DNA from: Lepraria neglecta
Taxonomy: Eukaryota; Ascomycota; Lecanoromycetes; Lecanorales; Stereocaulaceae
Reading direction: 5' to 3'
DNA: 64,000 nt
NCBI GenBank assembly: GCA_033220425.1
Contig: CM065647.1
Coordinates: 1,116,001 to 1,180,000, forward strand
Part shown: one piece after another, positions 24,360 through 62,438 of the stretch
How positions within the stretch are numbered: the stretch's first letter is position 1
Layout: each line of letters opens with the position of its first letter
Program-made: the position numbers and the translations under genes
Notes under the pieces: model-generated
Database searches by the model: none
The model's input: the letters and a program-made list of their open reading frames with translations, nothing else
What the model was told of the DNA's origin: nothing

Positions 24360-25748
24360 GTCTACTCTATATAATTAGTATAGCTTATAGTAAGAGAACA
24401 ACGGCTAGAGAGTAGGAGAAGAAGTATATAGTCTATCGAGTATATATTTCCTTCCCTATTACTTTAAGACTAATAGCGTAAATAAGGACTACTATAGAGA
24501 CTAGGGTAATATATCTAGTAATAGTAACGATATTCGGTAACCTAGTAGTAAACGATAACGAATAAATAATAGATATAATAGTCTAGAGAGGGATATCTAC
24601 GCGCCTCCGCAAATATAACGTATAGTATCTATACCTATCTATAGTTTATATAGCGCGAAATACCTTAGCTAACTAGTTATAGTCGTTATCCTCCTTACTA
24701 AATATATATAAGAGGCCTTCTACGTCGCCAGCGCCCTTACCTTCCTCTTAGAACTAGTTATCCTATAACTCTCGCTCTAAGATATCCTCGACCTCCTACT
24801 CTCGCTCTATAGTATCCTCGAGCTCCTCTTCCTTAATATATATATTATCCCTCTATTATATAGAGATATAGCTTCTCTAGGGAAAAATAAATAGGAGGCC
24901 TAGCTATACGTCGACTAAGGTATATAAACCTGTAATAGATTAGGCCAAGTACTTTATAAAGGCTACTATTATAAGTAGTTTAGATATAGGAGGCTACTCG
25001 CTATAGCCAAATATTTACTAGAATATACTACTTAGTAAACTAATAGGCAGGATATAGAGAAAGCTGGCTACTAATCTTAGTTAAGTACTAGGTTATAGAG
25101 ATACCGATATAAAGAAGACCCTAGAATAAGAAGAGGCGCGAATTATATATACTTCTACTTCTATAGATACAAGAATTATACTAATACGATATAGCTCTAC
25201 GACTATATCGGTAACTTTAGGGGATATATAATAGAGAAGGTACGAGAGATAGTTCGCTACTATTATAGCTTCAATAAGTAGAGAGATCCCTATAGATTTA
25301 TAGTAGACTTATTAAAAGATAATCATTTCGCCTATTAGGACGAGATATAGATTCGTATTATCCCCGATACGCGTCTACTACTAATAAATATATACTAGGG
25401 TAAAGGTAAAGGCTATTCCGATATTATCGTTAAGGCGATTAGCTCTATTTTCTTTAGGAATTAGAAGGATAGCTTTAGTCGAATAAGGTTAACTAAATAT
25501 ATATTTAACCCTATTACTAGGAGGACTATTATAACGGTTACAACGATAATTAGGTATAGTATTAGGGAATATAAATATAGAGAGAAGAGAATAATTAAGT
25601 TCGAGGGACCGGCGGTAGATAGTAAGTAGGATAATATCTAATAATATATAATAAATATAAACTAATAGTATCTAAATATATAGAAACGTTCTAAAGACTT
25701 AATTCCTGGTAGAATATCGTCCCTCCGAGTAGATAGGAGAAAATCCAA
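24360..25748 (+). pseudogene. Relic Z, 5' part (interrupted by P1)
   Basis: A plus-strand frame with RIP-type stops, clearest from about 25040: YKEDPRIRRGANYIYFYFYR, then YDYIGNFRGYIIEKVREIV, DPYRFIVDLLKDNHFAY and GKGKGYSDIIVKAISS. The acidic stretch at 24700-24850 suggests a low-complexity N-terminal part. I do not recognise the family. The frame is cut at the aa duplication of P1 (25747-25748), resumes at 43007 and is cut again by element C. It is the last gene of the old Plavaka/SNF2 locus. Confidence 0.5.
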
Positions 25749-25767
25749 CATCGCGCTTTCCCAAAAG
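25749..25767 (+). repeat. Left TIR of P1
   Basis: catcgcgctttcccaaaag, 19 bp, perfect inverted match to 42988-43006. The outer 17 bp recur at both ends of the two 616-bp MITEs. Confidence 0.93.
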
Positions 25768-25905
25768 TTGCTGGGAAATCCCGAGTTGCCGAGCGCGCCG
25801 GTAGGGCTGACAGTTACGTTCAGCGGAATTAGCAACTCAATATTACTGACAGCATCAAATCAGCTCGATCTGCAACTCAATACTACTAATTTAACGATGT
25901 TAGGT

Positions 25906-26035
25906 CAGTTAGCAATTAGATATTACTGTTAGTATAATGTATAACCAATTAGCAATTAGATATTACTGTTAGTATAATGTCTAACCAATCAGCAATTAGA
26001 TGTTACTGTTAGTATAATGTCTAACCAATTAGCAT
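25906..26035. repeat. Three 40-bp tandem repeats plus a partial fourth
   Basis: Units start at 25906, 25946 and 25986, with core agcaattagatattactgtt; a partial fourth starts at 26026. Differences between units are mainly transitions. Confidence 0.9.
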
Positions 26036-26547
26036 GTCCATTATACGTTCAGCCAGCTATTAGCTCAATCAATAATACAACGCTACTAATATATAGCTAC
26101 CAGTTTTCTTTTATTATAATTGATTACTTCTTATATAGTCTATACATTTCTACCAATTAGTAGCTGTATATCTTCTATACAAGATGTAAGTAGGTAGTCG
26201 AATCTAAATAAAGTCTTCTATATATACAATCCGTTTGAAATATAGCTACTACCGACAGCTCCTTTAGTATATAAAAGCTCGTTATTAGTAATATCAACAC
26301 AAGTTTAACTCGCGCTTATACTAATCCTTCTTTAACTTCTTCACGGGTTATTTAACCACGCTTTCCTCGATTCTATAATAACCTATTATCCGCTAATCCG
26401 ACTATATCTTCTACTCCTTATAATTCGAGTAAATAACCGAGATAGAGAGTTGCGACGCCTAGTTACTGAACTGTTAGCGGCACCTGGCAAAACTCTAGTA
26501 GATCAGGGGCGTATATATTTCGCCCTTTTTTGCCCTTGTCCGATTAG

Positions 26548-26645
26548 TATCCGACTCGGGTTTTACACTATCCGAGTAGTGTCTGACTCGGGTTTTACAC
26601 TATCCGAGTAGTGTCCGACTCAGGTTTACCCTATCCGAGTCGGAT
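26548..26645. repeat. 32-bp tandem repeats with CCGACTCGG / CCGAGTCGG sites
   Basis: Units at 26569-26600 and 26601-26631 with a partial unit on each side; core tatccgagtagtgtctgac. The outer copies contain the near-palindromes CCGACTCGG (26551-26559) and CCGAGTCGG (26634-26642). Confidence 0.85.
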
Positions 26646-26703
26646 GAATATTTGGCTAGACGTTTCTTAATATTTCTTCTCGTAGTTTACGGTCTCGTCG
26701 CTA

Positions 26704-26930
26704 TTATTTCAGCAAAGTATCGCTATAGATGCTTAATATCCGACGAATTTGCTCCCTGTCTTCCCCGATAGACTTTATATACGATACCGCGAGCTTAATA
26801 ACCTCCCTACTCCTCAGCTTACCGAAGTACCCGAATATTAGTAACGTGCGAGGGCCGTAGACTCGATACTAAAGCAAGCAAATATTATACGCGCAAGACA
26901 CTATATAGCCTACTAACGTGATATAGCTAT
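26704..26930 (-). pseudogene. Readable minus-strand C-terminal exon or small gene in P1
   Basis: The minus strand reads YGPRTLLIFGYFGKLRSREV, then IKLAVSYIKSIGEDREQIRR, and ends at a TAA (26704-26706). The only internal stop is one TAG at a likely Gln site. It could be the last exon of the transposase or a separate small gene. I do not recognise it. Confidence 0.45.
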
Positions 26931-26999
26931 AATTAAATATGCCGAAGAGAGGATTAATACCGCTACGGTAATTAAAACTATAGGTTAGTTCTTTATATT

Positions 27000-29900
27000 A
27001 GAGGTTTTCCTTAAGACTAAAGCCTTGACTTTAGATACGGCGAGGGCAGTCAGTAGCAGTATCTCTTCCGCTCTATCGACCTAGATATATTTATAGTATT
27101 ATCTCTCTTCCTTTTAATAGTTTTTACTTAGGTTTATAGCGTTGCCTAAGAAGGATTTAGTAGGAATTTGGCGTAGATTCGTCGCGCTGCCTTAGAATTA
27201 TTTGTTAGGAATTTGGGGTAATATATTATAGTATATTAGTCCTAGTCGATAAAACTGTTAATATAGAATATCTCTTTTCCTCTAACCGTTCCCGGTACTA
27301 GATAAGTACTTCGCTTAATATTTAGTAGTCTATAGAAGCGGCGAGCGCCTATCGTTCGAGGATTAAGTATAAGCGATACCCGTGCCTTTTCAACTTCGAC
27401 TATTCTATAGTAGTCTTATACCTACTCTAGATATTAATAATCAAAGACTTCTATAAGGGCAGCCTATATACGAGTAGGTCGTTACTTAAAGTCCCTGTTA
27501 CTAAGATCCTTTACCTCTACGACGACCAAGACCTTACTAACTAACTTTCCCTCCTATATAGTTTCCGGGTTTTAACTCTTATAGTCTTATTCTCGGACCT
27601 ATATATAATCTCTACGCTAGGTAAAATACTGCGAATATTTATAAGGTCTATAGACTACTAAATCCTTATAGAGACGTCCTAAATCAGATAAGTCCTCTCC
27701 TATAGTCTTCTAATATACGAGGCCCGAATAGATATAGACCGGGTAGCTCTTAACCCAGCTACAGTCTGCCTCCCTTCTATCGATATCTAGGTTCGAGGTT
27801 ATACTACCTCTGCTTAGCGTTTTCGCTCGGTGCGCCTTAAGAAACGCAGCCAGGCTTTAGAGAAACCTAGCTATATTCAGCCATTCAGCTATATCTCTCG
27901 CCGTTCGCCAGTAACGACTATCGTATTTATATAGGTGTCTTAATATATAGCGCTCTTCCGCGTCTACTCGCTATCCTAGTTAGTATAGATCTAGAAGGAC
28001 CCCGGCCTTTATACTTTTCTCGTCTTCTTGTTTTCTCCTCTAACTAAGTAATATAGGCTTCGTCTCTTAGAAATTTTTAATATTCTATATAATTATTAAC
28101 TTGATATAGCGTTCGTTATATTCTATTAATTGCTTCTAGTAATCCTTATACTTATTTATTTGGTTATAGTAATTCTTTAGTAATATCGGATATACCCTTT
28201 CCGAGGCTTAGGTGCTATATCTATCTAGCGGACTATAGTATCTAATTATATTAATATAATAACTGATACTATGGAATTTGGGAAAGTTGAAAGTTTACTC
28301 GCCCGTTTTCTTATTAACTGGCCTATATTTTTAAAATACCTCCTTAAGTAGATCAATCCTTTCCAACGCTACGTTTATATATTCTAGTATCGCTTCGTTA
28401 TAGGATTAGTATCTTATAAGTATAATAAAGTCAACGATAGCTCGTCCTGTATATAGTATATCTAGGTTTTTTTCGGATAATAGAGGAGCGAAGACGGGTA
28501 TTATAATCCGTAATATCTCTTTACTCTCCTCTCCTATCTATTAGCTCAGCTTACTAAACTCCCGAAATCGCCTTAGCTTAGTAAATTTAGGTATAGCTCG
28601 AAACCGGGCGTCGATTAAGGCTTATACCTTAAGCTTTATTCGTCCCTCTCCGATATACTCTCTAAGCCAGTCTAGGAGGTAGTTTAATAGCCCTTTAACC
28701 ATTAATTAGTATAATATATTAAATATCTATAGTTAGTAGACGTTAACTGCGAAGTGGCCGTCTATAAAGTTGGGCCGGTTATATACCATTATATCTAGTA
28801 ACACCCTAGGCGTATTCTTATCATACGTTTTTTGTATCTATAACTACTCTATAGTCTATTTAGGTATTCGCTTTAGATATAGTTTTTCAGGATATAGTCG
28901 TTCCTATTCATTTAGCGGTACTAAGTAGACCGGATAGTATTTACCGCTCTTGATCGAGGTTATTAAAACTTGTTCCTCGTAGTCGCCTAGTATAGATACG
29001 AGTATTAGGTAGTATCGTCGTATTCGTCCGTCTATATATATAATAAGGATCCCCTTCGGCGCTAGCTCCTTAAGTACTTTAAAAGAATATTATTAGTATA
29101 TTAAGTAAGATCCGTATTTCGGCCGGCTTACCCTCGACTATAAGCCCTATAGCGTAGTAATACACCTCGGCTTTCACACTATTATAGACTAATAGTACCA
29201 GTCCAAGCAATATCATCCCCGGCCGAACCTATACCCGCTGAATACCTCGATCGAGGTTACCAATAGTAATATAGACTGGCCACGCCTATTAATCTCCGTA
29301 TATCCGTAATAAATAGGTCTTGTCTAACGATATTATAACCGGTACTACTATTAAGCTATCAGGGAGCTTATCTTATATCTCCTACTACTAGCGGGCTATA
29401 TATATCTTACTAACGATTAGACCCCCGTCGAGGTTTCGCTGGCGTATTAGTATATAGTTAATACTCGAATTAAAAGGTTTATATCCGATAAGAGTTCGTA
29501 TTATACCTATTATATCGAAGTAGAGTATATAATATATTCTAGTCGTCTCGTCCGGTTGAATCAATAGGATACTAAACGCTTGCCGAGACTATCTACTAGT
29601 AGTAGCAGAATACTTTATAGTATATAGCTTGGCTTTTAGTTATAGAGCGCTATTAAAGCTACAGGGTCCGTGGAAAGGTCGTAATCGAGTATCTTTGAAG
29701 AAATTGTCTATTATACCGCTAGATAGTCGGGCGTTATATATCTATAAAGCTAGGGTATAATCAGCTTCTAAATAGAAAGGGTGCTAGTCCAGGTTCGACT
29801 CGGGTATTAACTCGGATATCGACTCAGATAGGGGCATGGACAACGACTCGGCTAGGGTTATATCCTCTTCCTCTAAAGGCCTCCCGGTACCTTACTCCTA

Positions 29901-30311
29901 TAGGTAGTACTCTATAGAGCTAACGGTCAAGGTAGAGATAGTACCTATAGCACTTGACGCCGTTATTAACTTCGATTAATCGAGTACTATATCTAGCTTA
30001 TCTTACTAGTACCAGATCTCGTTAGTAGAGTCGGTAAGTTCAAGCAATCGCCCTAGAGTATCGTTATCTATTAAAATAGTCAGGTCCTCCTAGAGGACTT
30101 ATCTACCTTCGCCCTTACGGGGACTATCACCGATCACGTCGACCTCGTCTCTTTAGCGTTTATTAATAGGGCCCTCGACTTTATCTTCGTCGAGGCGTAC
30201 CTATCTCCTACGCGTCTAATTAGGGTCCCGGCCCTTACAGCGTGGTAGATACCTAGTTAGGCCGCTTCCGCTGCTACACTGCTTCTGGTAACGTTTACAC
30301 TATCGATCCAT
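27000..30311 (-). pseudogene. P1 transposase, Plavaka type
   Basis: About 1100 codons on the minus strand, read through RIP stops. The ATG at 30309-30311 is followed at once by a C2H2-like finger (C-x-R-Y...C-S-S-G-S-G-L-T-R-Y-L-x-x-C, about 30237-30302). The catalytic region follows: KGILIIYIDGRIRR (about 29035-29065), GDYEEQVLITSIKSGKYYP (28940-28989), a DGHFAVNV block (28741-28762), GLLNYLLDWL, and KLRRFREFSKLS with a GEESKEILRIIIPVFAPLL block (about 28480-28600). The FNFPKFHS...YYINIIR block is near 28270. These blocks and their order are those I know from fungal Plavaka transposases. A longer C-terminal part to about 27000 is readable but not assigned. It cuts and rejoins the TIR ends of P1 and probably its MITEs. 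Confidence 0.82.
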
Positions 30312-31150
30312 CTGGCTCAGGCGTAATATAGAGGTATTATTATCGAGATCAACGCGTCTAGGCAGGTATTAGTAAATATATTCGCTACTAGATCCTTCAA
30401 GCTAACCCGCTATAGGTTAGGATAAATCTATCCTTACGTCGCCTTATATAGCCTGTTTTTAACCGTTACTATCAATTAAATTACAATATACGTATAGTAG
30501 AGTATCGTCCTATAGAAGGCGTTGATTAATAGATAGTTTAAGGGGATTTTCTTTCTATACGATATATTTAATAAATACCCCGGTTACTTATCTTATTAGG
30601 AAATATAATTAGTTATAAACCTTGTAGTATATACCCCTGTTACCAAAATATACGTCCGAGTCGAACTTGGATTATTTTTATAATAGAGTACTTAATTAAG
30701 ACTTATATTTCGAAGAACGGAAGAAGAAATCTAATTAATCTTTACAAGCAGATAATAAGTTTTAATACTCTATCTTTACTAGATATTAGATATTAAGTAT
30801 AAAGCTAGATATAGTACGTTTAAAATCAGCTGTTCGCTTTCTACGTACTATATATATATAAGTTCCGCTTTTAATCAATATCTTTATCTATTATATTAAA
30901 GCTCGCTACTTTCAATCTTTCGATAGCTAAACTTACCTACTTATAACTACTCTAATATACTATTCTATAGAGAAGGGTCTATATCGCCCAATTATATTAA
31001 GTATTAAACTATTTCGTAACGTATTTACCTTACTAGTATTATATTTACTAACTACCGACCAATCGCTATTATAAATAAAAACCTAGTATAGACCCTACTA
31101 GTCGTATTACCCGCTTTATCCCTCCAACTCAGCGAAGAATCCTTAACTTC
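30312..31150. promoter_or_regulatory. Divergent intergenic region of P1
   Basis: About 0.8 kb between the transposase start (minus) and the first SNF2-like gene (plus). It is AT-rich with no readable frame and holds gtccgagtcg near 30655. As the only space between divergent genes it should carry both promoters; no specific core element could be defined. Confidence 0.4.
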
Positions 31151-34100
31151 TCCCTATTTTATTCGTCCTATTATTATTCTTCTTATTATAGATATATTAG
31201 AATCATCTATAGTATTATCTAATATAGCCGGTCCTTCTCTAAGCGACCCTCAGGTCGATATAACGCCAGAGCCTGCGCCAACCGAGGCCAATTTCTATAC
31301 GCTTATTAGCAGGCCAAAGTCTAGTAATCCGCCTGGAATCCCATGGAACCTCCCCAATATCTATAGAGGCTTACAGTATAGTAATAGCTTGTTTAATACC
31401 CTCCGTCAAGTACTTAAAGACCGCCTATAGGGTATCGCTATTTGGGGCGAAAATCTTCGAGGTTCTAGCCAGGACTTTACTAAGGTCCTCAACTCCGTTA
31501 CCACTAACTTCATTCTACCCGACTATATACTACCTTTTAGAGACGAAGCAATATATATACTCGTAAGACTACTTAATAAAGTACCTAGAGTAGCTAACCG
31601 ATATACTAGTAAACGACCCTTAGAGGAGTCTTATAACTCGTTTAGTTTAAAAAAGCCTAGATATAATAATACCCGTGCTAAGTAACCCGATTATACTAGA
31701 CTATTCTTCGTACTAGCTCTAGCCCTAGACAATACCTACCCGCCTTATATCATCCTTAGAATCGGTTATACGCGCGATAATAAATTCTATCTTGTCTAAC
31801 TACGGTATATTATACGTAATACTTCGCTTACTAATACTAACTAGCTCTAGGACTAACTCAGTTATGATGCTCTAATCTAGTTCCTAGAAACCAAGAAATT
31901 CTAGACCGCCGAAGATAATGCCCGGGGGAGTACCCTTATCTATATATCCAATAGGATTATAGAGGTAACTACAAACAAAGATCTACAAAATGCCATCCGC
32001 GATATATATTCACGTGGTTACTAGCGCTACGAGCTTTATATTGTACGAGGGGCACTCCGTTAGTTATACTACGTCAATCAATAGTTAGGATATTAACTAA
32101 TAGGTGTAATAGTATCTATCGAGGGCAATACGGCCCATCCAAATTAACCTTACCGAGGTAGTTTTACCCTCTCCTACCGCTTAAAATATTCTTCTCTTAC
32201 GGTAGGACCTAAAGGGAAAACCCCTAATATATAGGATCCTCTAGGCAAAGACCCTACTACCTCTTCTACCAAACCCTCTACCCTAAAGCCTTTCGTCGAT
32301 CCTTCCCTTCTTACTAATAAGTATACTAGTCCGTCTACCGGGAATCTAAAGGAGCCTATAGATATTAGCTCTAGCTTAGATAGTAGTAGTAGTATAAATA
32401 ATAAGGAAGAGAATAATAGAAAGGAAGGGGATTTAATAGATAAGGACGAGTAGAAGGCGTTATAGATCAATAAGGCCTATATAGGTAGGACTCCAGGGTT
32501 ATATAATATCAAGATAGATAGGGTAGTAGTAGCTAGAGTAGCTACGAAAGATATAGAGGTATTAGAATAGGAGGATCGCGACAGGATATAAGTGCTTTAG
32601 CCTCTACCTTATTATTTGCTTACTACTAAATACTACCCTAGCGTTAATATAACCAAGGTAGAGGATCGTCCGCAATAGTCTCAGAAAACGTAGTAGTATA
32701 TAGAGTTATTATTCCAACTGCAGAAGGGAAACCAGTCTATTAAGAATATACGAACCCTCCGTAGGTTATTATCTATTGTAGCCCCTAACGGCAAGATAAA
32801 AAAGATTATACTATATATTTATTAACTCTACTGCGCTGCTTGGATACGCCGGCGTATTTACTAGCAGGGGGGTATTAATAGGGACGATCCCGGCTTTAGT
32901 AAGGTTCGTATCTATTTCTAGCTTTTAATAAAACCTACTATCAACTCGGACAATACTAACGTCCGACTCGAACTAGACTCTAACGATTTTTGTTATATAT
33001 ATCCTCGAGTATTAACTCTCCTTATAATAGCGCGAGGTTTTCGAAATACGTAAGTAGGATTATAAAAATCTCGAATAGTTTAAAGCGTCAATCTATTATA
33101 CTAAGTATCTCCTACCCTCGAAATTAAAGGTATAGAGCGGTAATAATATATATCCCTCTGCTAATAAATAGGATATCGGTTATCTATATATCGAGAAAAG
33201 CGCCGCCTATTTAACTAGCGTACCGAAGCAAGGTATTATTCTTATTATCGTACTAGCGAAAGTAATAGGTAACTAGTTACAAGAGTAGACGAAGATAATC
33301 GATACTTAATATCTAATATTGAAGCTACGGTGCTTCTATACCTATATAGATAAAATATATAATAATATTAACGCTACCCTACTTATATCGGAAAATACTA
33401 AACTACTTTGATATAAAAAGGATAGAAAACCTAAACCTGGATAGGAGTATATTCTACTCCTTACGACTAAGGGCTCGTATAATAGGTATATTAAGGAAGT
33501 GCTATAGGACTCTAAGTCTCTATTCATCTATAACTTCCGTATTAGCTAGATCTTTATTAACGAATTCTATAAGACAAGGATAGTAAAGGGTGAATATCCT
33601 AAGATAGTCCTTGGTATTAAGGATGAGATTAGTACCTAAGTCCTAGTAAAAATACTAGAGGATAACGAGAACGAGTAGAATACTATAGATGATCGGCGTA
33701 TGAAAATATACCGATCATCTTTGCCCTGGGTGTAGGGTTTCTCCGCTACACCGTGGACACGCGACCTAACTAACTACTCGGCTATAATCTATATAATCGA
33801 GTAGCCTTAGTAGTACGCTATTAAAGAGTATTAATATATAACTTATAACGAAGTCGAGGTTGTTAGGAAACTAACCGCTAGCTACCGAAAGCGAAAGAAT
33901 CCGGTTAATAAGAGCGAGAATAATAAGAATATCGCAGATATAAAGGCTATCTTAAACTCTATCGAAATTAAGCGGACACCTATAACTATAGATATTAATA
34001 GGACTACCGAGCTTATTAAGCTACCTCCGTACGAGGCTCGTCATATTATATACTTACTTAATCTAGAGTAAAAGGCAGCTCTTCGCGCTGAGGATTAGAG

Positions 34101-35030
34101 GATCTAAGATATAGCAAAAGCCGAATATACTAGAGAATATATAATTACTCGCAAGGCTGGCAAGGAGATACCTACGCTAGCGATTAATAACTACTTTAAA
34201 CGCGCCTATAAGCTACGCGCTGCCACTATTATCCCAAGCCTTCTAGAATTCTCTCGGCGTAACTACCTTACTCTTACTTAGGACGAGCTTAAAGGGGGGC
34301 CTTCATATAACGGCGGAAAGGGTCGTATAGATTTTACAGAGTTAGCTGGCCTGATATAGAATTGGGCCAAGATGCCGCTAGATAGTATTTATACTAAACA
34401 TATCGATGAACTCACCGGTAATACACCGAATTTAGTAAAACTTAAAGAGTTGATCGGCTTACTAGGGGAAGATATCTACGGGTAACTAGAGAAACTGGTT
34501 ATATTCACTAGTTCTCCTATTATTATATATATTCTGGCGGTAGTAAGTCTATATCTCTTCCGCTGTTCTACCTTGACCTTATACTAACCTTGCTCTAGTA
34601 GTTTAAAAAGCATTTTCCTAGTAAATAGCTATAGTATAGCTTAACCGTACCTTCCGAGAAGCGAGATAAGTTATATATATAGCTATTCTAAGAAGAGGAT
34701 GATAAGCGCTTCCTTATCTCTACGAAACGTATCCTTAGAACTAGTATTACCCTGACCCGTATATTTAGAAGTATAAATATAGATATAGACTGGATATAAT
34801 TCTATAATATTTAGTATAATAGGCGGGTAGTTCGGTTATCTCAGCGAAATCCAAAGATATATAACTACTACTTTATTATAGACGATGAATATAGAGTAGA
34901 TTAGAAGGTATTATTTAAATAGAGCAGAGATAATATAACAAGGCAATAGGCGTATAAATAAGCTAGATATTTCTAGCTAAGTAATGGCGCGCTTTTACGG
35001 GTTTCTTTTCTTCTGCTTAGCGGTACTTTA
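31150..35030 (+). pseudogene. P1 SNF2-type ATPase, copy 1
   Basis: An N-terminal part of about 300 codons (31237-32100; PGIPWNLPNIYRGLQYSN and TNFILPDYILPF readable) is of unknown family. The helicase motifs follow in order. Walker A survives as EKS (GKS with G to E) at 33193-33201. Motif Ia is LIIVLAKVIGN (33265-33300). Motif II is IFINEFYKTR (33550-33580; DEFH with D to N and H to Y). Motif III is GFSATPWTRDL (33737-33766). Motif IV is KLVIFTSSP (34491-34517). Motif VI is RRVVRLSQRN (34822-34853), in another frame. SNF2 enzymes move along DNA and shift nucleosomes, so a role in opening chromatin for transposition is an inference. A partial second copy lies at 36740-39480. Confidence 0.78.
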
Positions 35031-35734
35031 ACTTCGTATAAGATAGATATAAGACTCTTATTACCCTTCTATAGTAATATTAAATCTAATCTATACTGGT
35101 TCGGGAAGACTTGAAAGTACTTAGATTACTAGCTATTCCCCTTTGCTTTCTCCTATCTTTAGTAGATATTTTATACTATAGTCTTCCTTGAATATCCGCC
35201 ACTAAAATCTAGATATACTATATACTTATATACTAAATACAAGCTGTAGGTAAAAGGGAATATAATTTATAGCCCTAACTTGCTAGATTATAATCGTATT
35301 TAATACGAACTATATACGCTACTATACTCCTTTATAACGTATTGTCTTAAGTTATAATCTTCCTTATAATACCCTTCTATTAATATAGACTCTTTTAACT
35401 AAGACTATTATTAAATAAAGGGAGAAACCTACTCGAAAGTCAAGTAGTTATACCTATACTCAATATAGATACTATATAGGGAATAGCCTACGCGTCGAAT
35501 AATATCGAGTATTAGATAGTATTCGAGTCGGATAACTCTCGATATCCGAGTCGAATAGCGCTTGATATACTTGGCGTTCGAGTCGGATATCGCTTATTAC
35601 ACGCTAATTACTATAGGCTTAGTACGGAATTATTCTTTATATATTATATATCGACCTCTTAATCCTTTCCTATACTCCTTTCTCTTACTACTAATATATT
35701 AATCGATACTCTATACCTTATATATATACCCGCT
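35031..35734. other. P1 interval after SNF2 copy 1
   Basis: Strongly AT-rich with no frame I can support. Three CGAGTCGGAT / CCGAGTCGAA sites sit close together at about 35522-35585, just upstream of the next gene, possibly its promoter. Confidence 0.4.
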
Positions 35735-36690
35735 ATAGAATACTAGTACAAGCCCGCAGCCGTCGCCGCCGACGTTTTCCCCTCCTCTCTAGCCTCTTTA
35801 CCTTCTACCGAATTCTATAAAAATACTAACCCCAGGAATTGGACGGTCTCGGTTATTTCGCGTAGCCTTATAGTCGAATAGGCCTACTATAAGGAGATTC
35901 GAGTAGTATTAAAGAAAGAGATAGAAAGGAGATATATCGTTAGTACGTCCCTAGGGACACCGGAGAACCAGGCTAAACTCGGCGAGGCCTTACAGTAGTT
36001 GGAAATAGTATTTCCCTCCGTTTTTATACCTAGAATCCCCTAACCCTAGCTAGAGAGTTATAAATTAGGTATAGCCAGAAAGATTAATAATACCTACAAT
36101 TACTATCGTAATCGTAGAAGGCGTACTATACCGTCTCTCTCTACGGATAGTACTCTATATATAGCGCGTCCGCTTACCTTCGATAAAATAGGATTCTATA
36201 TCCGGTCGATAGAGATAATAGCGAATATACTTTTCTTTGCCTCCGATATTATTAAGGAGAAAAAACCTCTAGCTAGTATTATATTAGACGAGATCGAATT
36301 TAGAATATTTAAAGAGGTCTTATACGAGGACGGTATCTATAACGGCTTAACTGACCGAATTCTTTATTATATTAGTAAAAACGATATTAAAGTTGATTAT
36401 ACTCGCAAATTCAAGGTGGCTACCTTATAGATATATAATATAGGCGAGAATCCTATCTCGTTTTATATTAAGACGCGCCTGCGAGGTATATATCTTATAC
36501 TTTACTTCGATCGCGCTCCTACTAACTATACTCTAGTAAAACGGCGGGCCCGCGTGAAATATTGAATAATAGGTATACCTCACGTCCGTTTCCGCGGTAT
36601 ATTAGTAAACCTAGTTAATTACAGTACGCCGATACTACTAAATTATATACTCTAGTATTCTTCTTCGTTCTAACTTAGTAAAGGGCCTCT
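35735..36690 (+). pseudogene. P1 unrecognised gene, unusually well preserved
   Basis: One plus-strand frame of about 315 codons with only a few stops, all at likely Gln/Trp. The start is probably ATA at 35735 (ATG after G-to-A). Readable stretches are FPSSLASLPSTEFYKNTNPR, VLKKEIERRYIVSTSLGTPE, RNRRRRTIPSLSTDS, KPLASIILDEIEFRIFKEVL and ENPISFYIKTRLRGIYLILY. The basic RNRRRR patch could be a nuclear signal. No domain is recognised. It sits between the two SNF2-like copies. The lighter damage compared with its flanks is notable. Confidence 0.55.
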
Positions 36691-36739
36691 ACTTCTTTAT
36701 ATTTCATTCTTCCTATTATTACTATCCCTATTATACCTC

Positions 36740-39480
36740 TATATAACCTTACCGGGCTAGATATTCTTCTCTTATAGTATAACCTAAGAATATAACCTAT
36801 AATATATAGAATCCTCTACGCGAAGACTCTACTACCTCTCCCGCTAAATTCCCCGCCCTAAAGCCTTATGAATTCTCCCCCTTAATTAAGTAAGCCTACT
36901 AGTATTTCCTACCCGGCCTCTAAACGATCCTATACTTACCCGTTCCGATATAAATAATAGTAGCTATACTAGTAATTAGGAAGAGAAGGAGTAAGAGGAG
37001 GAAGGGGATACTATAGAAGAGGACGAGGAGAAGGCGTTAAAGGTTAGCAAGGCCTATAATAGCAGGGTTCCGAAGTTATATAATATTAAGATAGGTAGGG
37101 TAGTAGTAGCTGGAGTAGCTACGAAAGATCTAGAAGTATTAGAACAGGAGGATTGTAATAGGATATAAGTACTTCAACCTCTACCTTACTATTTGCTTAC
37201 TACTAAATACTACTCTAGTATTAATATAACCAAGGTAGAGGACTATCCGCAATAGTCTTAGAAAACGTAGTAGTATATAGAGTTATTATTTCAGCTATAG
37301 AAGGGAAACCGGTCTATACAGAATACACGAAACCTCTATAGGTTATTATCTATTATAGCCCCTAACGGCAAAATGAAGAAGATCGTACCGTTCATTTATT
37401 AGCTATACTATACGGCTTAGATAAGATAGTAGGCTTTCTAATAGGCGGGAGCTATCTATAGGCGAGATTCTAGTTTAGGGATGTCTAAACTAAATTATTG
37501 CTTCTATCAAGGACTCTAGTCAACTCGAACAATACGGATGTTCGACTCAGGCAATACTAACGTCCGACTCTATCTAGATCGAAATCTATATATACAAAAT
37601 TATCTAATAATTCGAAACGTCGTCTTATTATAATAAGCATCTCTCGCTAGAGAGATTAAAGCCACGGAGTTATTAAGATATATATCTATCGGCTCACAAA
37701 TAGAATGTCAGTTATCCGTATATCAAGAATAGCGCCGCCCGGAATATTAGCGTAGCGAAGTCAGGTATTGTTCTTACTATTATACTAGCGAAAGTAGTAG
37801 GTAATTAGTTACGATAGTAGACGAAGATAATCGATATAAAGCGGACGCTATACACTTAAGATATCTCTGGGACTACCGATCTGGTATGACTACCTCCCTA
37901 CAAGATTCGTTATATTATATACCCGCCTTCGCTAGTATAAAATATAGCTCTTCGCGCCGAGGATTAAAGGATCTAAGACGAAGCGAAAGTAAAATATACT
38001 AGATAATATATAATTGCTCGCAAGGCTAGCAAGAGGATACCTGCGCTAACGACTACTAACTACTTCAAACATGTATATAAACTACGCGCCGCTACTATAG
38101 TCCCAAGCCTTCTGGGATTCGCTCGGCTCGATAACCTATCTCTATATACGGATAAGCTCGAAGGGGGGATTTATATAACGGCGGCGAGGGTCGCACGAAC
38201 TTTGCAGAGTTGGCTAATCTAAGAGAAGACTAGACTAAATACCCGCTAGCTAGTATCTATATCTATTATATCGAATATTTTGTTAATAATAGTCCGAAGT
38301 TAGTTATATTAAAGGATTTAATTATTAAACTAAAGGAGGATATCGTCGGAAGACCGCAACAACTATCTATAATTACCAAGCTATCTACTACTATATATAT
38401 TCTGGCGATAGTAGGTCTATAGCTCTTCCGCTATTTCGTCTTGGCTTCGCACTAACCTTACTCTAGTAGTTTGAAAGGTATTATCCTAATAAATGACTAT
38501 AGCGTAGCTCGGCCTTACCTTCCGGGAAACGAGATAAATTATTCATATAGATATACCAAGGAGACAACTATTATCACTTTGTTCCCCCTACGAACTACGT
38601 TCTTAAAACCGGTATTACCCTTACCCGTACCTCTAGAAGCGTAAATATAGATATAGACTGGATAAAGTACTATAGGATTTAATACTATAGGCGAGTCATT
38701 CGGTAGTGATAGCAAAGATAGAAGGTATACGAGTATAGTATATTTCTAGATGAGGCAAAGGGATCTTAATTCAATTATTATCTAGATAGGTAGATAGAAA
38801 GCTCTTAGTAAGAGTAGGTATAATATAATAGAATCAACCTATAGGTATTGCCAGCAGCAAATTTGAGGACTAGTTTAAATATTATAAATAGTAGACCCCG
38901 TCGTTCGAATTAGAGACTAGAGAAACTATACTATTCAACTCAACGTTACCGAGATAATATTTATATCCTAGAATCCCGCTATAAAGACCTAGCCAATACT
39001 ACCCGCCGCTTTTCCTAATCTAGATTCGTCTTCTCTAACAAATCCAAACGCTGTCACCGCTATAGAGGATATAGTTCCGCCAACTTAATATATATCCGCT
39101 AGTAGAGATTCTCTTTATAGGACGTGTTATGAATAGAAGGAGGTATCTAATCGTTATTAACCAAGCCGAAGAACTAATTCAATCGGTTAAGCTAATAACG
39201 TAACTCCACATCCTACCTATACAACTTAAGAGCCGGCGGCAAAGTATATATTATTAACGTACTGCAGCGAATCCGGTGAGTCCGGCTCCGCATATATTTA
39301 TCGATAGATACTCGAGTAGGTAGTATCTAAGGTCTTAAGGTCCCGGGCCAATAGGGCGGAGGCGGCGTATACTCGTCGAGGATATAGAAGAAACGGCGAT
39401 ATTCGTTATACGTAGGAGAACTATAGCTGGAGATATAGTCCTGGTAGCAACCTATTCGAAAAGGTAGGAAAATTTCGTTC
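36740..39480 (+). pseudogene. P1 SNF2-like copy 2, internally deleted
   Basis: Direct repeat of copy 1: 36755-37860 matches about 32175-33303, and 37850-38740 matches about 33968-34860. Copy 1 bases of about 33303-33968 are missing here, which removes motifs II (DExH) and III. So this copy could not be an active ATPase even before RIP. Downstream of the shared part a plus-strand frame to about 39480 reads YCSESGESGSAY and SKVLRSRANRAEAAYTRRG, perhaps the C-terminal tail of the original gene. Confidence 0.7.
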
Positions 39481-39559
39481 GACTCGGATAGACTTTTATC
39501 CGACTCGGCTAAGTTTCTATCTAACTTAGTTAATAGTCTTTAAGCTAACTCGATTTTAT

Positions 39560-40200
39560 ATTAATATTATATTAATTAAAACAACACGACAATAATACGC
39601 TAAAGAAGCCTATCCCTTTCCGAAAACCTTCGCCTTCTTCCCCTAAGAACCTCGCCCGTCTAGCTACCTATAACTAGCTATATCGTCGTAGATCATACTC
39701 CTTAATACCTTATACCACCTCGTTACTAGTAAAGACCCTTATATATATTAGATAGATAATAGGGATCTTCTAATAATAGCTAAGATAAAGGGAGAATAAC
39801 TAGTAGCTACTAGAAAAGCCTAGGAGACTAAAGCGAACAAGCGAAAGGTACGATTCGAACCGAGTAACTTATTCTATATATTAATATATTAGTAGATTAA
39901 GGCTATTAAAGAAAAGTAGCTAGAATCTAAGAGAAGTACCGAAGGGGACGACGGAGTAGTAGAGCCTAGGAAACGTCGAAGACGTAATAGTAACCTTAGC
40001 GAGGATATCTCTGAAAAAATACGCGAAGAAGAGGTCTCTTTAAAGATAACTAGCGTCGAGGATATCGAAATATCTTCTAATAACCCTATAACCAGCCCTG
40101 CGAAGAGACCAGTGCCTGCTATCGTTATAGGGGTATAACTTCCCTATACTCCTATATTCGGTCTGTTAGATAACTCTATATTTAGGAGACGGAAAAGATA
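39560..40200 (+). pseudogene. P1 unrecognised basic-acidic gene
   Basis: A plus-strand relic: KPIPFRKPSPSSPKNLARLA is followed by a Q/R-rich, probably coiled-coil stretch, then NKRKVRFEPSN and a cluster PRKRRRRNSNL. An acidic tail SEDISEKIREEE follows and the relic ends near 40190. The layout (P-rich segment, helix, basic patch) resembles the C-terminal tail of fungal pogo/Fot1 transposases, but no DDE core is seen upstream, so that is only a possibility. There is at least one frame change. Confidence 0.4.
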
Positions 40201-41400
40201 GGCTTCTCCGTTATAAGTACGATTAGTGTATAATAATAGATATAACCTATTGACCGTATAGCGTAAACAGACGTGGCCGTCGACGTCCAGAATCGATACC
40301 GCATTGTAAAGCGATACGAGTATTACCCAAAAGAAGACCGTAAGTTGCCCATCGACGTCATGCGTATATTTAATACGCTAATATAGAAAGAAGGAAACAA
40401 TATAGAACTATATAATAAAACGAGGTCCTCAAGGGAATATAGATACTAGGAACTACCTACGCAGCTCGGTAAATAATAAATTAGAGACGCGTGTTCATCA
40501 AATATAGCTGAAATAGCCGATGGTACAGGAACAACGAAACCGAACATCTTTATATACAGAGCAGAATGGCCAGCGTGCCGGACGACCTACCTAGACGCCC
40601 CAATAGATAATAACTGATAAGTTCAAATCTGCTAGTAAGAAACATCGAAAATCGAGAGAGAACCTAATTAGCAGACGGAAGGATAAATTAATAGTATATT
40701 TACCTCGGCATATAGGTCTTATAATAACTGATCGTTATAGTCGGTATAATATAAGTAGCGATAGCCAACCCGCACCGCACCACCTATACGGTACAAGCGG
40801 CCGAATTCTAGTACCGCGACTACGGGATGATTATCTAATCCTGACGATCGGGTTCTATCATCTAAAAAGACAAGGCCTAGACTATTATCGACTTCGTTGC
40901 CTATACCTATATATATATCGGATATTGAATCTAAAGACGACTATAAGGAGGTAACTACGGAGGAGGCGGCGGGACCTATCGCTTGGGGTAGTTCTAGGCG
41001 TCGCTAAGCGCAAAGATACTAATCCTCACGGGAATATCAATATATTTTCTACGCAACGAAGCCTATATTCCTCTCCAAGATTATAGGCGGTAATAATACC
41101 AATAGCCTATCACCATGGCTAGAACATAACCCGGTAGCTCTAAGTGACCTTATAATAAGAATATAGAGAGAATAGAAGGCTAAGCTCTAAAGAATAAAGG
41201 GACCTTAAGTTATCGGCGATCCAGATACCTTAGGTAATATACTAACTCCTAAAGAAGCTCGCAAGGTTATCACTCCTAAACCCCTACCTATTTATATAAC
41301 GCCGCGTAATAGCTAATATCTTCGTAGCTTATAGATAGCCTAAGCGAATTCAGAAGTTTTATAATAAGGAAAATAAAATCAACCGTTAAAATGGTAGTAG
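40200..41400. other. P1 interval without a supported gene
   Basis: Sequence with moderate RIP damage. It retains many CA/TG, for example around 40480-40650, but I could not follow one frame for long. It may be the 5' part of the next relic or a separate damaged gene. Confidence 0.35.
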
Positions 41401-42560
41401 AATAGCTATACCTAACAGTCGAGGACCGGAAGAATAATATATCGAACCTACTATTTAATATGTGATTTACTTTCGCGGATCTAGAGAAAGGTACAAGTAT
41501 TCTTCTTTCCTAAATAAGAACGAAATATATAGCTAATAGATCTAAGATAAGGGTTATTTTCTAGTACCGATAATTGTAATAAGTCTATATCGCGTTTTTT
41601 TTCTAATAGAACAAGCGCTATTAGACTCAGGCATAAGAGTATAGATCTATAGAAACCTTTACCCGCTAGTACTATTATTTTCGTTATAATAGCGCTTTAT
41701 TATATATTCGAAGAATACGAATATAGCTCCTATAGGATTAAGAGATAGGACGGTATATTAGTTAGTAGTAAGTCAACCTAATACTCGAAGAACAACCTAT
41801 ATACTAATAATACCTTAAGCTATATTCGAATATATAATAGAGGTATAGTACGATATAGGTGAAATCAAAACGCGGATAGTTACGGGACTACTTTATCGTC
41901 GAATAATAGACTACTACTACACGAATAGGCATAGTAAGAACTGTCGACTACTAGTTACTAATACGTTCAAGGATTCCCTAGAAGATCTGAAAAATCAACT
42001 AGACCTTTAGAGCGTTCTAGAGGAGATAGGAATAAATAATACTAGTATAATAGGCTAAGAAGAAGAGCACGGAAATAATAAAGAATATACGGTATATATA
42101 AGAAGCGATTACAGGTATATATTATCGGCTAACACTGAAATCAAGGCTAAAGAACCATCTCCCGAGGAGGGTCTTAACGAGACCAATTTAGAGTTTAGAA
42201 ACCAGGATAGTTTTTTCGCTTCCCTCACCTTTAGTAATAATTCAGCGGAGATAATAGACATCCAGGTATTTTTAATATGGGACTTCGAGCGTATACGGAA
42301 GGAGGCCGGCCTATAAGTAGATAAGAGTCTTTAGGAAGAGGATTATATTATAGACGTCGAAGAGTAGAGTAGGTTAGTAGAGAGGTGGATTATAGAGGAT
42401 AAAATAGTATATCTAAATATTATTCCAATAGGAGAAGAACCTGAGGACTAGGCTGCTAAGGATACTGCGGAGGGGATAGAGGATAGATCGATAGAGTATA
42501 AAGCTTAGGCGGGAGGAAGCCTGACAGAATCAAGCTGTCAGCAATCGAATATATAGCTAT
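41400..42560 (+). pseudogene. P1 unrecognised gene near the right end
   Basis: A plus-strand frame readable for about 330 codons with few stops. It includes EQALLDSGIRV near 41610 (resembling an aspartic-protease D-S-G box), then GLRDRTVYQLVVSQPNTRR, KTRIVTGLLYRRIIDYYYTN, KEPSPEEGLNETNLEF and an acidic C-terminal third (EEDYIIDVEE, ERWIIEDKIV). The LLDSG box followed by a beta-rich stretch suggests a retropepsin-like fold, but the partner features of a retroelement are absent. Function is unknown; it lies about 450 bp from the right TIR. Confidence 0.5.
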
Positions 42561-42987
42561 TGAACGTATAATATGAAAATAATTATCGTATTATCTTTTA
42601 AAATCGCCTAGCTCGGATAATACTACCTATAGGTTAATTCTGGATAAGATATCTGACTCGAATATACCTACTACAGCGGAGGATATATCCGAACTATCCG
42701 ACTCGGATGACTTCTTATCTACTAATATTGTCGATATACTACCTAAGCGCATATGTTTCGCATTCCGGAACAAATGCGCAATGGTGGCGTTGGTCCACGA
42801 AAGCAACTTTTGATACTAATGTTATAGGCGCCTAGCGCAGCAATTTGAGGTTGTAGATACTACTATCGGCAACCTCGAGTTGCTAATTTGGCTAATTTCT
42901 CGGTCCGCAATCGATATAGGATATAGACCCTAATCGCCATGCGGCCTGCTAATAGCGCAAAACTAGCTGCGACGCTAATAACATAAT
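42561..42987. other. Right subterminal region of P1
   Basis: Non-coding. It holds tccgactcgga near 42700, gttgctaatttgg and gcaacctcgag motifs, and from about 42842 to the TIR the same sequence as the left 165 bp of the 616-bp MITEs in inverted orientation. Confidence 0.65.
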
Positions 42988-43006
42988 CTTTTGGGAAAGC
43001 GCGATG
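42988..43006 (-). repeat. Right TIR of P1
   Basis: cttttgggaaagcgcgatg, perfect complement of the left TIR, followed by the aa duplication. Confidence 0.93.
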
Positions 43007-43777
43007 AACGGGTTATACAAGTAGAAATCGTAGTATATACCCTTATAGACGAGACTGCTAATCCTAAAGAAAACGAATTTATAGATCTATTTATAGATAG
43101 TTTAAGCGATATTAATAACTCTATTCTATATTCTCGTCCTTCTATATAAAGTTAGCGATTAGGTAATAGAGATAATCTAATTAATAGATCTAAGGGCGAT
43201 ATAGATCGGAATAGTTAAATAGTTTATTATTCGATTTATCTTTACCAAGATATATTATTTACTCTTTACTAGGGTATCTCGTTGAACTTAGATATAGTAT
43301 TCAATATAGGAGACGAGGATAGCGGAGGATAGTATAATAATATAAAGGTAATTATTATCCCGATTATCGAAGAAGTAAGTACCTACTAAATATAAGATAC
43401 TAGGGCGATAATATAATAATCCTATCTCTATCGGATCCGATCGATAAGGGAGAAACTTCCGGCGGTATTATATATCGCAAGCCTAATACGAGGTATAGTA
43501 GATATAGATATATATAATAAAACTAGTACTTATAAAAGGTTTATAATTAGGCGACGTACCTAATAAGGAGATTACTAAGGACGATAATATATAAGAGTTA
43601 GATATACTAGCGGACGAATATATAATAAAGGTAAAGGGTACCGACGAGCCACAACGTATAAGGTTAGGGATTATATATACTACGTAGTATAAGAAACTTA
43701 GAGTGAAGAAGGGCTATAGGATATAGTACCGTGCAACGCCAAAGACGCCTCTAGTAGTTATACTCGATGAGACTATA
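43007..43777 (+). pseudogene. Relic Z, middle part
   Basis: Continues Z after P1: TLIDETANPKENEFIDLFID at once after the junction, later ELDILADEYIIKVKG and TPKTPLVVILDET, where element C interrupts it at the ctata duplication. The last codons lie beyond C. Confidence 0.55.
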
Positions 43778-57515: not shown

Positions 57516-58131
57516 CATCGCGCTTTCCCAAAAGATTATATCATTAGCGTTATAGCTAGTTTTGCGCTATTAGCAGGCCGTATAGCGATTAGGGTCTGCA
57601 TCCCATGTCAATTACGGGCCGAGAAATCAGCAGGATTAGCAACTCCGGTTACTATTAGCAACTCCAAGGTAACCAAGCAGCACCCAAAAATCATCCCCGA
57701 AGACATGCGACCGCGCGCAATAATTACGATACTGCGACGCCGTAACTAAACCCCTAGGGTAGCTACGAATATCACCCCCGCGAGAATTTGGGCCCAATCG
57801 CACGATTCCGGGGTCCGTTTTCAGCTGGTGTTAATAGAGCTCTAGGGGAGTCGCTGCCGTCGATAGCGACGATTATAGAAAATCAACATTTTGCTTAGTT
57901 ATTAATCACGTGATTCGCTAAATGCTTGCTAATCCTGCTAATCCTGCTATTAGCAAGCCGGAGTTGCTAAATACGCTGAAATCGCGCTATTAGCGGGCGC
58001 TATTTGCTAATTACGCTGAAATCGACCTATTAGCGGGCGCTATTTACTGATCCTACTAATAGGCTAATCTCAGCCCTATCCGCGCGTCTAGCAAATTAGA
58101 AGTTCTTAGTAAGATTTGGGAAAGCGCGATG
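57516..58131. mobile_element. 616-bp MITE copy 1 (P1-derived)
   Basis: TIRs of 17 bp, catcgcgctttcccaaa, at both ends; duplication aa at 57514-57515 and 58132-58133, checked against the empty site in element B. Its left 165 bp match the right end of P1 (42842-43006, inverted). There is no coding capacity. The interior has repeated gctgatcctgctgat and gcgggcgctatttgct motifs. It is the more RIP-mutated of the two copies. Confidence 0.93.
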
Positions 58132-61822: not shown

Positions 61823-62438
61823 CATCGCGCTTTCCCAAAAGATTATGTCATTAGCGTTATAGCTAGTTTTGCGCTGTCAGCAGGCCGTATAGCGATCAGG
61901 GTCTGCATCCCATATCAATTGCGGGCCGAGAAATCAGTAGGATTAGCAACTCCGGTTACTGTCAGCAACTCCAAGCTAACCAAGCAGCAACCAAAAATCA
62001 TCCCCGAAGACATGCGACCGCGCGCAATGATTACGATACTGCGACGCCGCAACTAAACCCCCAGGGTAGCTACGAACATCACCCCCGCGAGAATTTGGGC
62101 CCAATCGCACGATTCCGGGGTCTGTTTTCAGCTGGTGTTGATAGGGCTCTAGGGGAGTCGCTGCCGTCGATGGCGACGATCATAGAAAATCAACATTTTG
62201 CTTAGTCATCAATCACGTGATTCGCTGAATGCTTGCTAATCCTGCTGATCCTGCTATTAGCAAGCCGGAGTTGCTGAATACGCTGAAATCGCGCTGTTAG
62301 CGGGCGCTATTTGCTGATTACGCTGAAATTGACCCATCAGCGAGCGCTATTTGCTGATCCTGCTGATAGGCTAATTTCAGCCCTATCCGCGCGTCTAGCA
62401 AATTAGAAGTTCTTAGTAAGATTTGGGAAAGCGCGATG
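61823..62438. mobile_element. 616-bp MITE copy 2 (P1-derived)
   Basis: Same length, TIRs and orientation as copy 1; duplication ta at 61821-61822 and 62439-62440, checked against the intact site in element C (near 49133). About 94% identical to copy 1 with no indels. At most differing sites this copy has C/G where copy 1 has T/A, so it is the better-preserved one. Confidence 0.94.

What the first reader, a model, noticed from the sequence alone, without database searches (positions are those of the whole stretch)
25749..43006. A 17.3-kb Plavaka-type transposon with SNF2 ATPase genes and several unknown genes
Seen: a 19-bp perfect TIR, an aa target duplication, a reading frame of the host relic that rejoins across the site, a minus-strand transposase with Plavaka blocks and an N-terminal C2H2-like finger, and divergent plus-strand SNF2 motifs (GKS, Ia, DExH, SATP, IV, VI). 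Most Plavaka elements I know of carry little beyond the transposase. A transposon that brings its own chromatin-remodelling ATPase and at least three other genes would be an unusual multigene DNA transposon. Inference: the SNF2 protein assists transposition or counters silencing.
Basis: partly seen in the sequence, partly recalled or inferred. Interest (0 to 1): 0.92.

Follow-up and report, generated by a model that had tools for sequence, protein, structure and literature searches.

The report
Multigene fungal transposon carrying SNF2 ATPase
A 17-kilobase jumping gene of an unnamed, probably fungal genome carries, besides its own transposase, a chromatin-remodeller-like motor gene and at least two further unknown genes; its copies here are riddled with mutations, and the kind seems to have been announced once at a meeting ("Entons") without a full description.

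Summary
Window 25749-43006 is one transposon of 17,258 bp: perfect 19-bp TIRs, a 2-bp AA target duplication, and 8 (near-)full-length empty sites elsewhere in the genome. Ten other fetched copies are colinear, 17,206-17,261 bp long, and differ almost only by RIP-type transitions. The minus-strand gene is a Plavaka transposase (PF18759). The plus-strand gene is a divergent SNF2 ATPase with at least two short introns; spliced from one genomic copy it passes the Pfam cut-off, and three relatives are 37-80% identical. A second, truncated SNF2 copy lacks motifs II-III. Genes C and E have relatives elsewhere but no known domain.

Two 616-bp non-autonomous elements in the window share both ends.

It is probably not a new class: a 2012 meeting report announced fungal "Entons" (En/Spm-derived, five to six proteins), and a 2013 paper gives them an SNF2 helicase. 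Membership cannot be tested without Enton sequences. What SNF2 does for the element is inference; no intact copy was seen here.

The parts
25749..43006 (.). whole transposon, 17,258 bp
   Evidence: TIRs, TSD, 10 colinear fetched copies elsewhere, empty sites
25747..25748 (.). target site duplication AA, left
43007..43008 (.). target site duplication AA, right
25749..25767 (+). left TIR, 19 bp
42988..43006 (-). right TIR, 19 bp
28139..30302 (-). Plavaka transposase gene (approximate extent, RIP-mutated); PF18759 at 28664-29083 and 29199-29555; C2HC-like finger at 30231-30302 by eye
   Evidence: the finger has no Pfam match
31020..34901 (+). SNF2 ATPase gene (approximate extent, about 1,250 codons read through; the N-terminal part is inferred and holds stops common to all 11 copies); introns 32904-32976 (73 nt) and 34543-34598 (56 nt); motif I 32883-32903, Ia 33259-33273, II 33553-33567, III 33736-33753, IV 34489-34515, V 34743-34757, VI 34821-34847
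   Evidence: P0001 matches 33046-34581
35726..36562 (+). gene C, about 279 codons, no known domain, relatives P0004-P0009
36686..38586 (+). truncated, diverged second copy of the SNF2 gene; lacks the block with motifs II and III
39776..41172 (+). gene D, possible nuclear protein with basic stretches; coding status not tested by homology
   Evidence: read-through only
41855..42448 (+). gene E, 198 codons matched, no known domain, relatives P0010, P0011
57516..58131 (.). 616-bp non-autonomous element, one TIR exact, the other with 2 mismatches, AA/AA flanks
61823..62438 (.). 616-bp non-autonomous element, one TIR exact, the other with 2 mismatches, TA/TA flanks

Best explanation
A once autonomous, multigene DNA transposon of the Plavaka clade (EnSpm-related), probably an Enton, that multiplied to roughly 40 copies and was then destroyed by RIP. 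Shown: the 17.2-kb unit, transposase and SNF2 included, was inserted as a whole with a 2-bp duplication, and its ends are shared with short non-autonomous elements. Inferred: the DDE transposase recognises the TIRs, cuts and reinserts the element; the SNF2 ATPase, spliced from at least three exons, is an ATP-driven accessory that most likely gives the transposase access to nucleosome-covered or silenced ends; genes C and E are further accessory factors. The confidence is for what the element is; for an accessory role of SNF2 in the element's own spread I would say about 0.5.
For: Unit: 11 colinear full-length copies, mean pairwise transitions 7.0% against transversions 0.076%; 8 of 11 with 2-bp duplications; empty sites. 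Linkage: 38 of 42 SNF2-probe matches have the Plavaka probe divergently upstream within 30 kb, 26 of them 5,280-5,305 bp apart; of 40 scored Plavaka places 37 have a first-copy SNF2 match on the expected side within 15 kb, 27 of them at 3,445-3,476 bp; gene C within 25 kb at 38, gene E within 40 kb at 38. Identity: PF18759; PF00176 31.0 bits over a cut-off of 24.9 in spliced read-through of one genomic copy and over cut-off in P0001-P0003. Relatives kept as long open frames elsewhere: P0001-P0003, P0004-P0009. Ends: the 616-bp elements match 130 bp of one end at 85-86% and 62-88 bp of the other at 72-74%. Precedent: PMC3520738, PMC3627910 (passages).
Against: No intact SNF2 copy seen here: the 38 places that cover at least 417 of 513 residues each have 7 or more in-frame stops (84 of 167 candidates scored), so function cannot be shown. 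A second spliced copy stays below the PF00176 cut-off (21.9 bits) and Helicase_C stays below its own. Two profile searches against solved structures (A1, A5) found nothing at 0.1 and 0.01; a single-sequence search found one weak remodeller match (E 0.021). Whether P0001-P0003 lie beside Plavaka transposases in their own genomes could not be seen. Termini are CATCG..CGATG, not the published PlavakaB CATCA..TGATG. Three of 11 copies have no matching 2-bp flanks. Four of 42 SNF2-probe matches found no Plavaka probe.
Confidence: 0.88

Rival explanations
1. Passive cargo: a Plavaka transposon captured a host gene cluster (SNF2 and others), which hitchhikes without a role in transposition.
For: The 616-bp elements show that the cargo is not needed in cis. 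The second SNF2 copy has lost the block with motifs II and III in all 28 second-copy rows that start at residue 303-306, so decay is tolerated.
Against: SNF2 and gene C are kept as long open frames in other records (SNF2 37-80% identical to the query; gene C 46-84% identical to P0004), which suggests long-term selection; the gene set recurs, 34 of 40 Plavaka places having SNF2, C and E nearby. None of this is a selection test.
Confidence: 0.28
2. The SNF2 half is an unrelated nested insertion with ends of its own.
For: Twelve of 38 linked places have a distance other than about 5.3 kb, which nested insertions or deletions can explain; one Plavaka place (C8:2991984) has only the truncated second SNF2 copy.
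Against: Ten fetched copies besides the window have the same length and order; 27 of 40 Plavaka places have SNF2 at 3,445-3,476 bp. The 20.7-kb case (C2:4603743) holds one of the fetched 17.2-kb copies between its two halves, and 20.7 minus 17.2 gives the usual 3.5 kb. The C8 case is about 4.6 kb shorter than the window copy, about the spacing of the two SNF2 copies (4,577 bp), and lacks gene C: it looks like a deletion between the two SNF2 copies (inference).
Confidence: 0.01
3. An endogenous gene cluster duplicated by ordinary segmental duplication, as the similar X3X3R8 repeat of Parastagonospora nodorum was read in 2010.
For: X3X3R8 is described as RIP-degraded, with a tandem SNF2/Rad5-like helicase whose second copy is incomplete (PMC3017866, passages).
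Against: Here TIRs, 2-bp duplications, precise empty sites and a transposase are all present.
Confidence: 0.02
4. Another large mobile element type (Starship, Polinton, Academ-like or a virus-like element).
For: Size and gene number.
Against: Six-frame, unspliced read-through of one copy gave only Plavaka in Pfam at 0.01: no tyrosine recombinase, polymerase or capsid. Scans of viral contigs with the SNF2 and gene C alignments found no relative.
Confidence: 0.01

Closest known systems
Entons (and Intons), fungal multigene DNA transposons: Kapitonov in Arkhipova et al. 2012 (PMC3520738) and Bao and Jurka 2013 (PMC3627910); passages read
   Same: Several conserved proteins, cut-and-paste ancestry, SNF2 helicase; Entons are said to derive from En/Spm, to which Plavaka transposases show recognisable similarity (PMC12730594)
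   Different: No sequence, termini or gene list of Entons turned up, so identity is not proven; the transposase here is of the Plavaka lineage; the host here is unnamed
Plavaka (PlavakaB) transposons, Kojima 2025 (PMC12730594); abstract, sections 3.2 and 4.2 and passages read
   Same: PF18759 transposase, termini starting CATC, 2-bp duplications; some PlavakaB carry an extra gene, a TET/JBP dioxygenase
   Different: Fifth terminal base G instead of A; no TET/JBP match in the copy scanned; SNF2 and genes C and E instead; the term SNF2 does not occur in the paper's text
X3X3R8 repeat of Parastagonospora nodorum (PMC3017866, passages read)
   Same: RIP-degraded multigene repeat with an SNF2-like helicase, an incomplete and diverged second copy behind it, and unknown genes
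   Different: 26 kb, carries a ubiquitin-conjugating enzyme, read as an endogenous gene cluster; no TIR or transposase reported in the passages read
VANC anti-silencing proteins of Arabidopsis VANDAL transposons (PMC10398659, abstract read)
   Same: Idea of a transposon-borne factor against silencing
   Different: Plant element; no relation between the proteins is known to me (recalled, not compared); anti-silencing is reported there and only inferred here
AcademH/KolobokH helicase-bearing DNA transposons (passages of PMC10799480)
   Same: Helicase beside a transposase in fungal DNA transposons
   Different: Other transposase superfamilies; helicases given there as DEAD/Helicase_C (RecQ for Academ in PMC3627910), not SNF2

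Membership tests
Plavaka | PF18759 transposase | tested here: met
   over the curated cut-off
PlavakaB | 2- or 3-bp target duplication | tested here: met
   8 of 11 copies with matching 2-bp flanks; empty sites for the window copy
PlavakaB | termini CATCA..TGATG | tested here: inconclusive
   CATCG..CGATG here: four of five bases agree
[quoted passage not shown]
   H-x3-H is seen in FNFPKFHSISHY (28256-28291); C(2)C could not be read in the mutated copies
TET+ Plavaka | TET/JBP dioxygenase gene | tested here: not met
   no such match in unspliced six-frame read-through of one copy at E 0.01; SNF2 was missed by the same scan, so this is weak
Enton | SNF2 helicase gene inside the transposon | tested here: met
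Enton | five to six conserved proteins | tested here: inconclusive
   four with relatives or a family match (transposase, SNF2, C, E); gene D not tested
Enton | fungal host | tested here: inconclusive
Enton | derivation from En/Spm | not tested
   no tree made; the Plavaka-EnSpm similarity is from PMC12730594
Enton | sequence relationship to described Entons | not testable with these tools
   no Enton sequence found; Repbase not held
SNF2 ATPases | SNF2-rel_dom PF00176 over cut-off | tested here: met
   31.0 bits over 24.9 for one spliced genomic copy, 21.9 (below) for a second; P0001-P0003 over cut-off
SNF2 ATPases | second RecA-like domain (Helicase_C) | tested here: inconclusive
   E 0.067-0.1, below cut-off; motifs V and VI by eye
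SNF2 ATPases | two-lobed RecA fold | tested here: inconclusive
   model pLDDT 36, not usable
transposon anti-silencing factors | removes silencing marks from the element | not testable with these tools
   needs experiment

The most novel reading that the evidence does not exclude
The SNF2 ATPase, with genes C and E, is a transposon-borne module that opens or strips heterochromatin (or helps the transposase handle a 17-kb element in chromatin), i.e. a chromatin-remodeller weapon of a DNA transposon against silencing, kept in Plavaka-clade elements separate from the announced Entons.
Probability: 0.3. Interest if true: 0.82.

Novelty: new member of a known kind. Interest (0 to 1): 0.55.

Why it matters
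Multigene cut-and-paste transposons were announced more than a decade ago, but no sequence-level description turned up in my searches. This element gives ends, target duplication, copy number, gene order, introns and non-autonomous partners for one, and makes it testable whether a DNA transposon uses its own chromatin remodeller. It also offers a reading for RIP-degraded 'gene cluster' repeats such as X3X3R8, and warns annotators that some fungal SNF2-like genes may belong to transposons.

Tried and rejected
Led nowhere: Pfam on unspliced six-frame read-through of one copy showed Plavaka only, no SNF2; the SNF2 match passed the cut-off once the 73-nt intron was spliced out. Profile searches against solved structures found nothing (A1, A5). 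AlphaFold models: SNF2 pLDDT 36, gene C pLDDT 52; the gene C fold search gave no match better than E 0.48. Viral-contig scans with the SNF2 and gene C alignments gave no relative. Pfam matches at E 0.03-0.3 (for instance CoV_NSP10, DUF6848, Ribosomal_S6) are taken as chance. Considered and dropped: a RecQ/Academ relation, an early reading of a GGSKS stretch that turned out to lie across intron 2.

Corrected on re-check: one search counted 38 of 40 Plavaka places with SNF2 within 15 kb, but one of these (C8:2991984) was linked to a second-copy row that I had left in the list; without it the count is 37. The genome searches score only part of their candidates (40 of 98, 40 of 51, 84 of 167), so all copy counts are lower bounds.

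Literature: the library was searched for Plavaka with SNF2, helicase, cargo, Plavaka alone (11 papers hold it, 10 listed), DNA transposon with SNF2, Academ, Enton/Inton as whole words (of the papers listed only PMC3627910 holds both; PMC3520738 writes them in the plural and was found through its reference list), EnSpm or CACTA with SNF2, Kapitonov with SNF2. No sequence description of a Plavaka element with SNF2 turned up; I saw most of these papers only as listings. Subscription journals and Repbase are not covered.
Full report
What is there. The window lies in a 42.0-Mb genome of 11 contigs, unnamed, with very strong depletion of CpA/TpG in most of the window, the mark of repeat-induced point mutation. 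The 19-bp TIR is exact at both ends of 25749-43006 and occurs 69 times forward and 54 times reverse in the genome, none in the reversed control. Among the first 100 of these 123 places, which are the ones listed, I read off 15 plus/minus pairs 17.2 to 18.4 kb apart, the window included. I fetched 10 of the other 14 (the four not fetched are 17.3, 17.8, 18.0 and 18.4 kb). The 11 copies are 17,206-17,261 bp long, colinear, and 91-94% identical. Of 3,426 two-state variable columns 3,384 are transitions, 42 transversions; 13 more columns have over two states. Mean pairwise difference is 7.0% transitions and 0.076% transversions. The copies were nearly identical before RIP, which means a burst of one 17.2-kb unit.

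Insertion. Matching 2-bp flanks are seen in 8 of 11 copies, against 0.085 expected each. For the window copy, the two flanks joined with one AA removed gave 14 matches: 8 run uninterrupted over 591-598 bases at 92-94%, 7 of them over all 598; two shorter ones also span the junction; two lie on one side; two are the window's own flanks.

Transposase. Read-through of the least mutated of the 11 copies (C3) gives PF18759 in two frames, E 1.1e-18 and 2.3e-10. In the genome the family has 84 matches, including the window copy at 28664-29083 and 29199-29555. A C2HC-like finger upstream is visible (30231-30302) but has no Pfam support. Termini CATCG..CGATG and the 2-bp duplication resemble PlavakaB (CATCA..TGATG, 2 or 3 bp; PMC12730594 section 3.2).

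SNF2. The gene runs on the plus strand, divergent from the transposase, from about 31020 to 34901; its N-terminal part is inferred from one long frame that still holds stops common to all 11 copies. Two introns with GT..AG ends and TACTAAC branch-like sites in the window copy lie at 32904-32976 and 34543-34598. Motif I reads DDPGFGK before the first intron and T after it; the codon of its second glycine (GFGK) is GGC in 6 of 11 copies and RIP-changed in 5, the window among them. Motifs Ia, II (FI-D/N-EFH), III (GFSATP), IV, V and a VI-like stretch follow. Spliced read-through of the C3 copy scores 31.0 bits for PF00176, over the cut-off of 24.9; a second, more mutated copy scores 21.9, below it. 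A database search found three relatives, 80, 67 and 37% identical, all marked PF00176. P0001 and P0002 end by reading into what is intron 2 here, so the intron is probably shared. Against: Helicase_C stays below cut-off, the solved-structure profile searches were empty, and the structure model is unusable. In this genome the 38 places covering at least 417 of 513 residues each contain 7 or more stops.

The second SNF2 copy. 31141-34718 is repeated at 36686-38586 with 70-80% identity and internal losses. In the protein search the second copies match about residues 6-88 and again from 303-306 on (28 rows start there), so residues of about 88-304, with motifs II and III, are missing from these. 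It is unlikely to be a working ATPase by itself.

Genes C and E. Gene C (35726-36562) has six relatives; five of them are 46-84% identical to the sixth, P0004; no known domain. Gene E (41855-42448) has two. Gene D (39776-41172) rests on open stretches only.

One unit or two. 38 of 42 SNF2-probe matches have the Plavaka probe divergently upstream within 30 kb, 26 of them at 5,280-5,305 bp; four have none. Starting from the 40 scored Plavaka places, 37 have a first-copy SNF2 match on the expected side within 15 kb, 27 of them at 3,445-3,476 bp; two have it at 15.9 and 20.7 kb; one, C8:2991984, has only the truncated second copy and no gene C. In the 20.7-kb case one of the fetched 17.2-kb copies lies between the two halves, which leaves the usual 3.5 kb. 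The C8 case is shorter than the window copy by about 4.6 kb, close to the 4,577-bp spacing of the two SNF2 copies, and looks like a deletion between them (inference). Gene C within 25 kb is found at 38 of 40, gene E within 40 kb at 38, all three genes at 34 (these limits are wide enough that a neighbouring copy could be counted). No TIR pair flanking transposase alone was seen, but I did not fetch every short TIR pair.

Ends. Two 616-bp elements in the window (57516-58131, 61823-62438) start with the same TIR and end with it at 2 mismatches, match 130 bp of the right end at 85-86% and 62-88 bp of the left end at 72-74%, and have AA/AA and TA/TA flanks. They indicate that the ends suffice in cis.

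Comparison. Arkhipova et al. 2012 (PMC3520738, passages) report Kapitonov's fungal Entons and Intons with five to six conserved proteins, from En/Spm and IS3EU ancestors. Bao and Jurka 2013 (PMC3627910, passages) name an SNF2 helicase in both. I take the element as a probable Enton, not a proven one. A further parallel is the X3X3R8 repeat of Parastagonospora nodorum (PMC3017866, passages): RIP-degraded, about 26 kb, SNF2/Rad5-like helicase with an incomplete, diverged second copy, unknown genes; the authors read it as an endogenous cluster. Whether it has TIRs or a transposase was not tested.

How it works. Shown: moved as a unit, 2-bp duplication, ends shared with short elements, mutated by RIP. 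Inferred: DDE cut-and-paste by the transposase, SNF2 as an ATP-driven accessory. TET/JBP genes in other DNA transposons, some Plavaka among them, are thought to counter methylation (PMC12730594 section 4.2), and VANC proteins counter silencing in plants (PMC10398659 abstract), which makes an anti-silencing role plausible; nothing here tests it. Passive cargo remains a serious rival.

Noticed in passing
L051 3620-4459 (C2:2652122-2652958) and L052 1986-2822 (C2:4058385-4059221): Stand-alone copies of gene C outside the transposon, little touched by RIP, 94% identical to P0004; the first has no stop, the second one. The gene C piece is flanked by about 300-bp direct repeats (L051 3279-3580 and 6779-7084), and the two loci are largely duplicates of each other.
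   Followed up: partly
L051 4573-6713: A 2.1-kb insertion, unclassified, interrupts the sequence upstream of that gene C copy.
   Followed up: no
G000 C3:3982347-3983060: A distant relative of gene C, 26% identical, in a 322-codon frame without stops: possibly a host gene or another family.
   Followed up: no
window 7669-8091, minus, and C5:3423943, C2:5957183, C6:956773, C3:227755 and others: Other Plavaka relics in the genome with no SNF2 (P0001) match listed near them: multigene and simpler Plavaka families may coexist.
   Followed up: no
25749-43006 across 11 copies: Of 3,384 transition columns 1,872 lie in CpA/TpG and 1,216 in CpG context: CpG sites vary a great deal too, perhaps by deamination of methylated CpG besides RIP.
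   Followed up: no
G000 C8:2987718-2993482: A copy that seems to have lost gene C and the first SNF2 copy by a deletion of about 4.6 kb, close to the spacing of the two SNF2 copies.
   Followed up: partly
57516-58131 and 61823-62438: Two 616-bp non-autonomous elements, 94% identical, that share the ends of the 17-kb transposon.
   Followed up: yes
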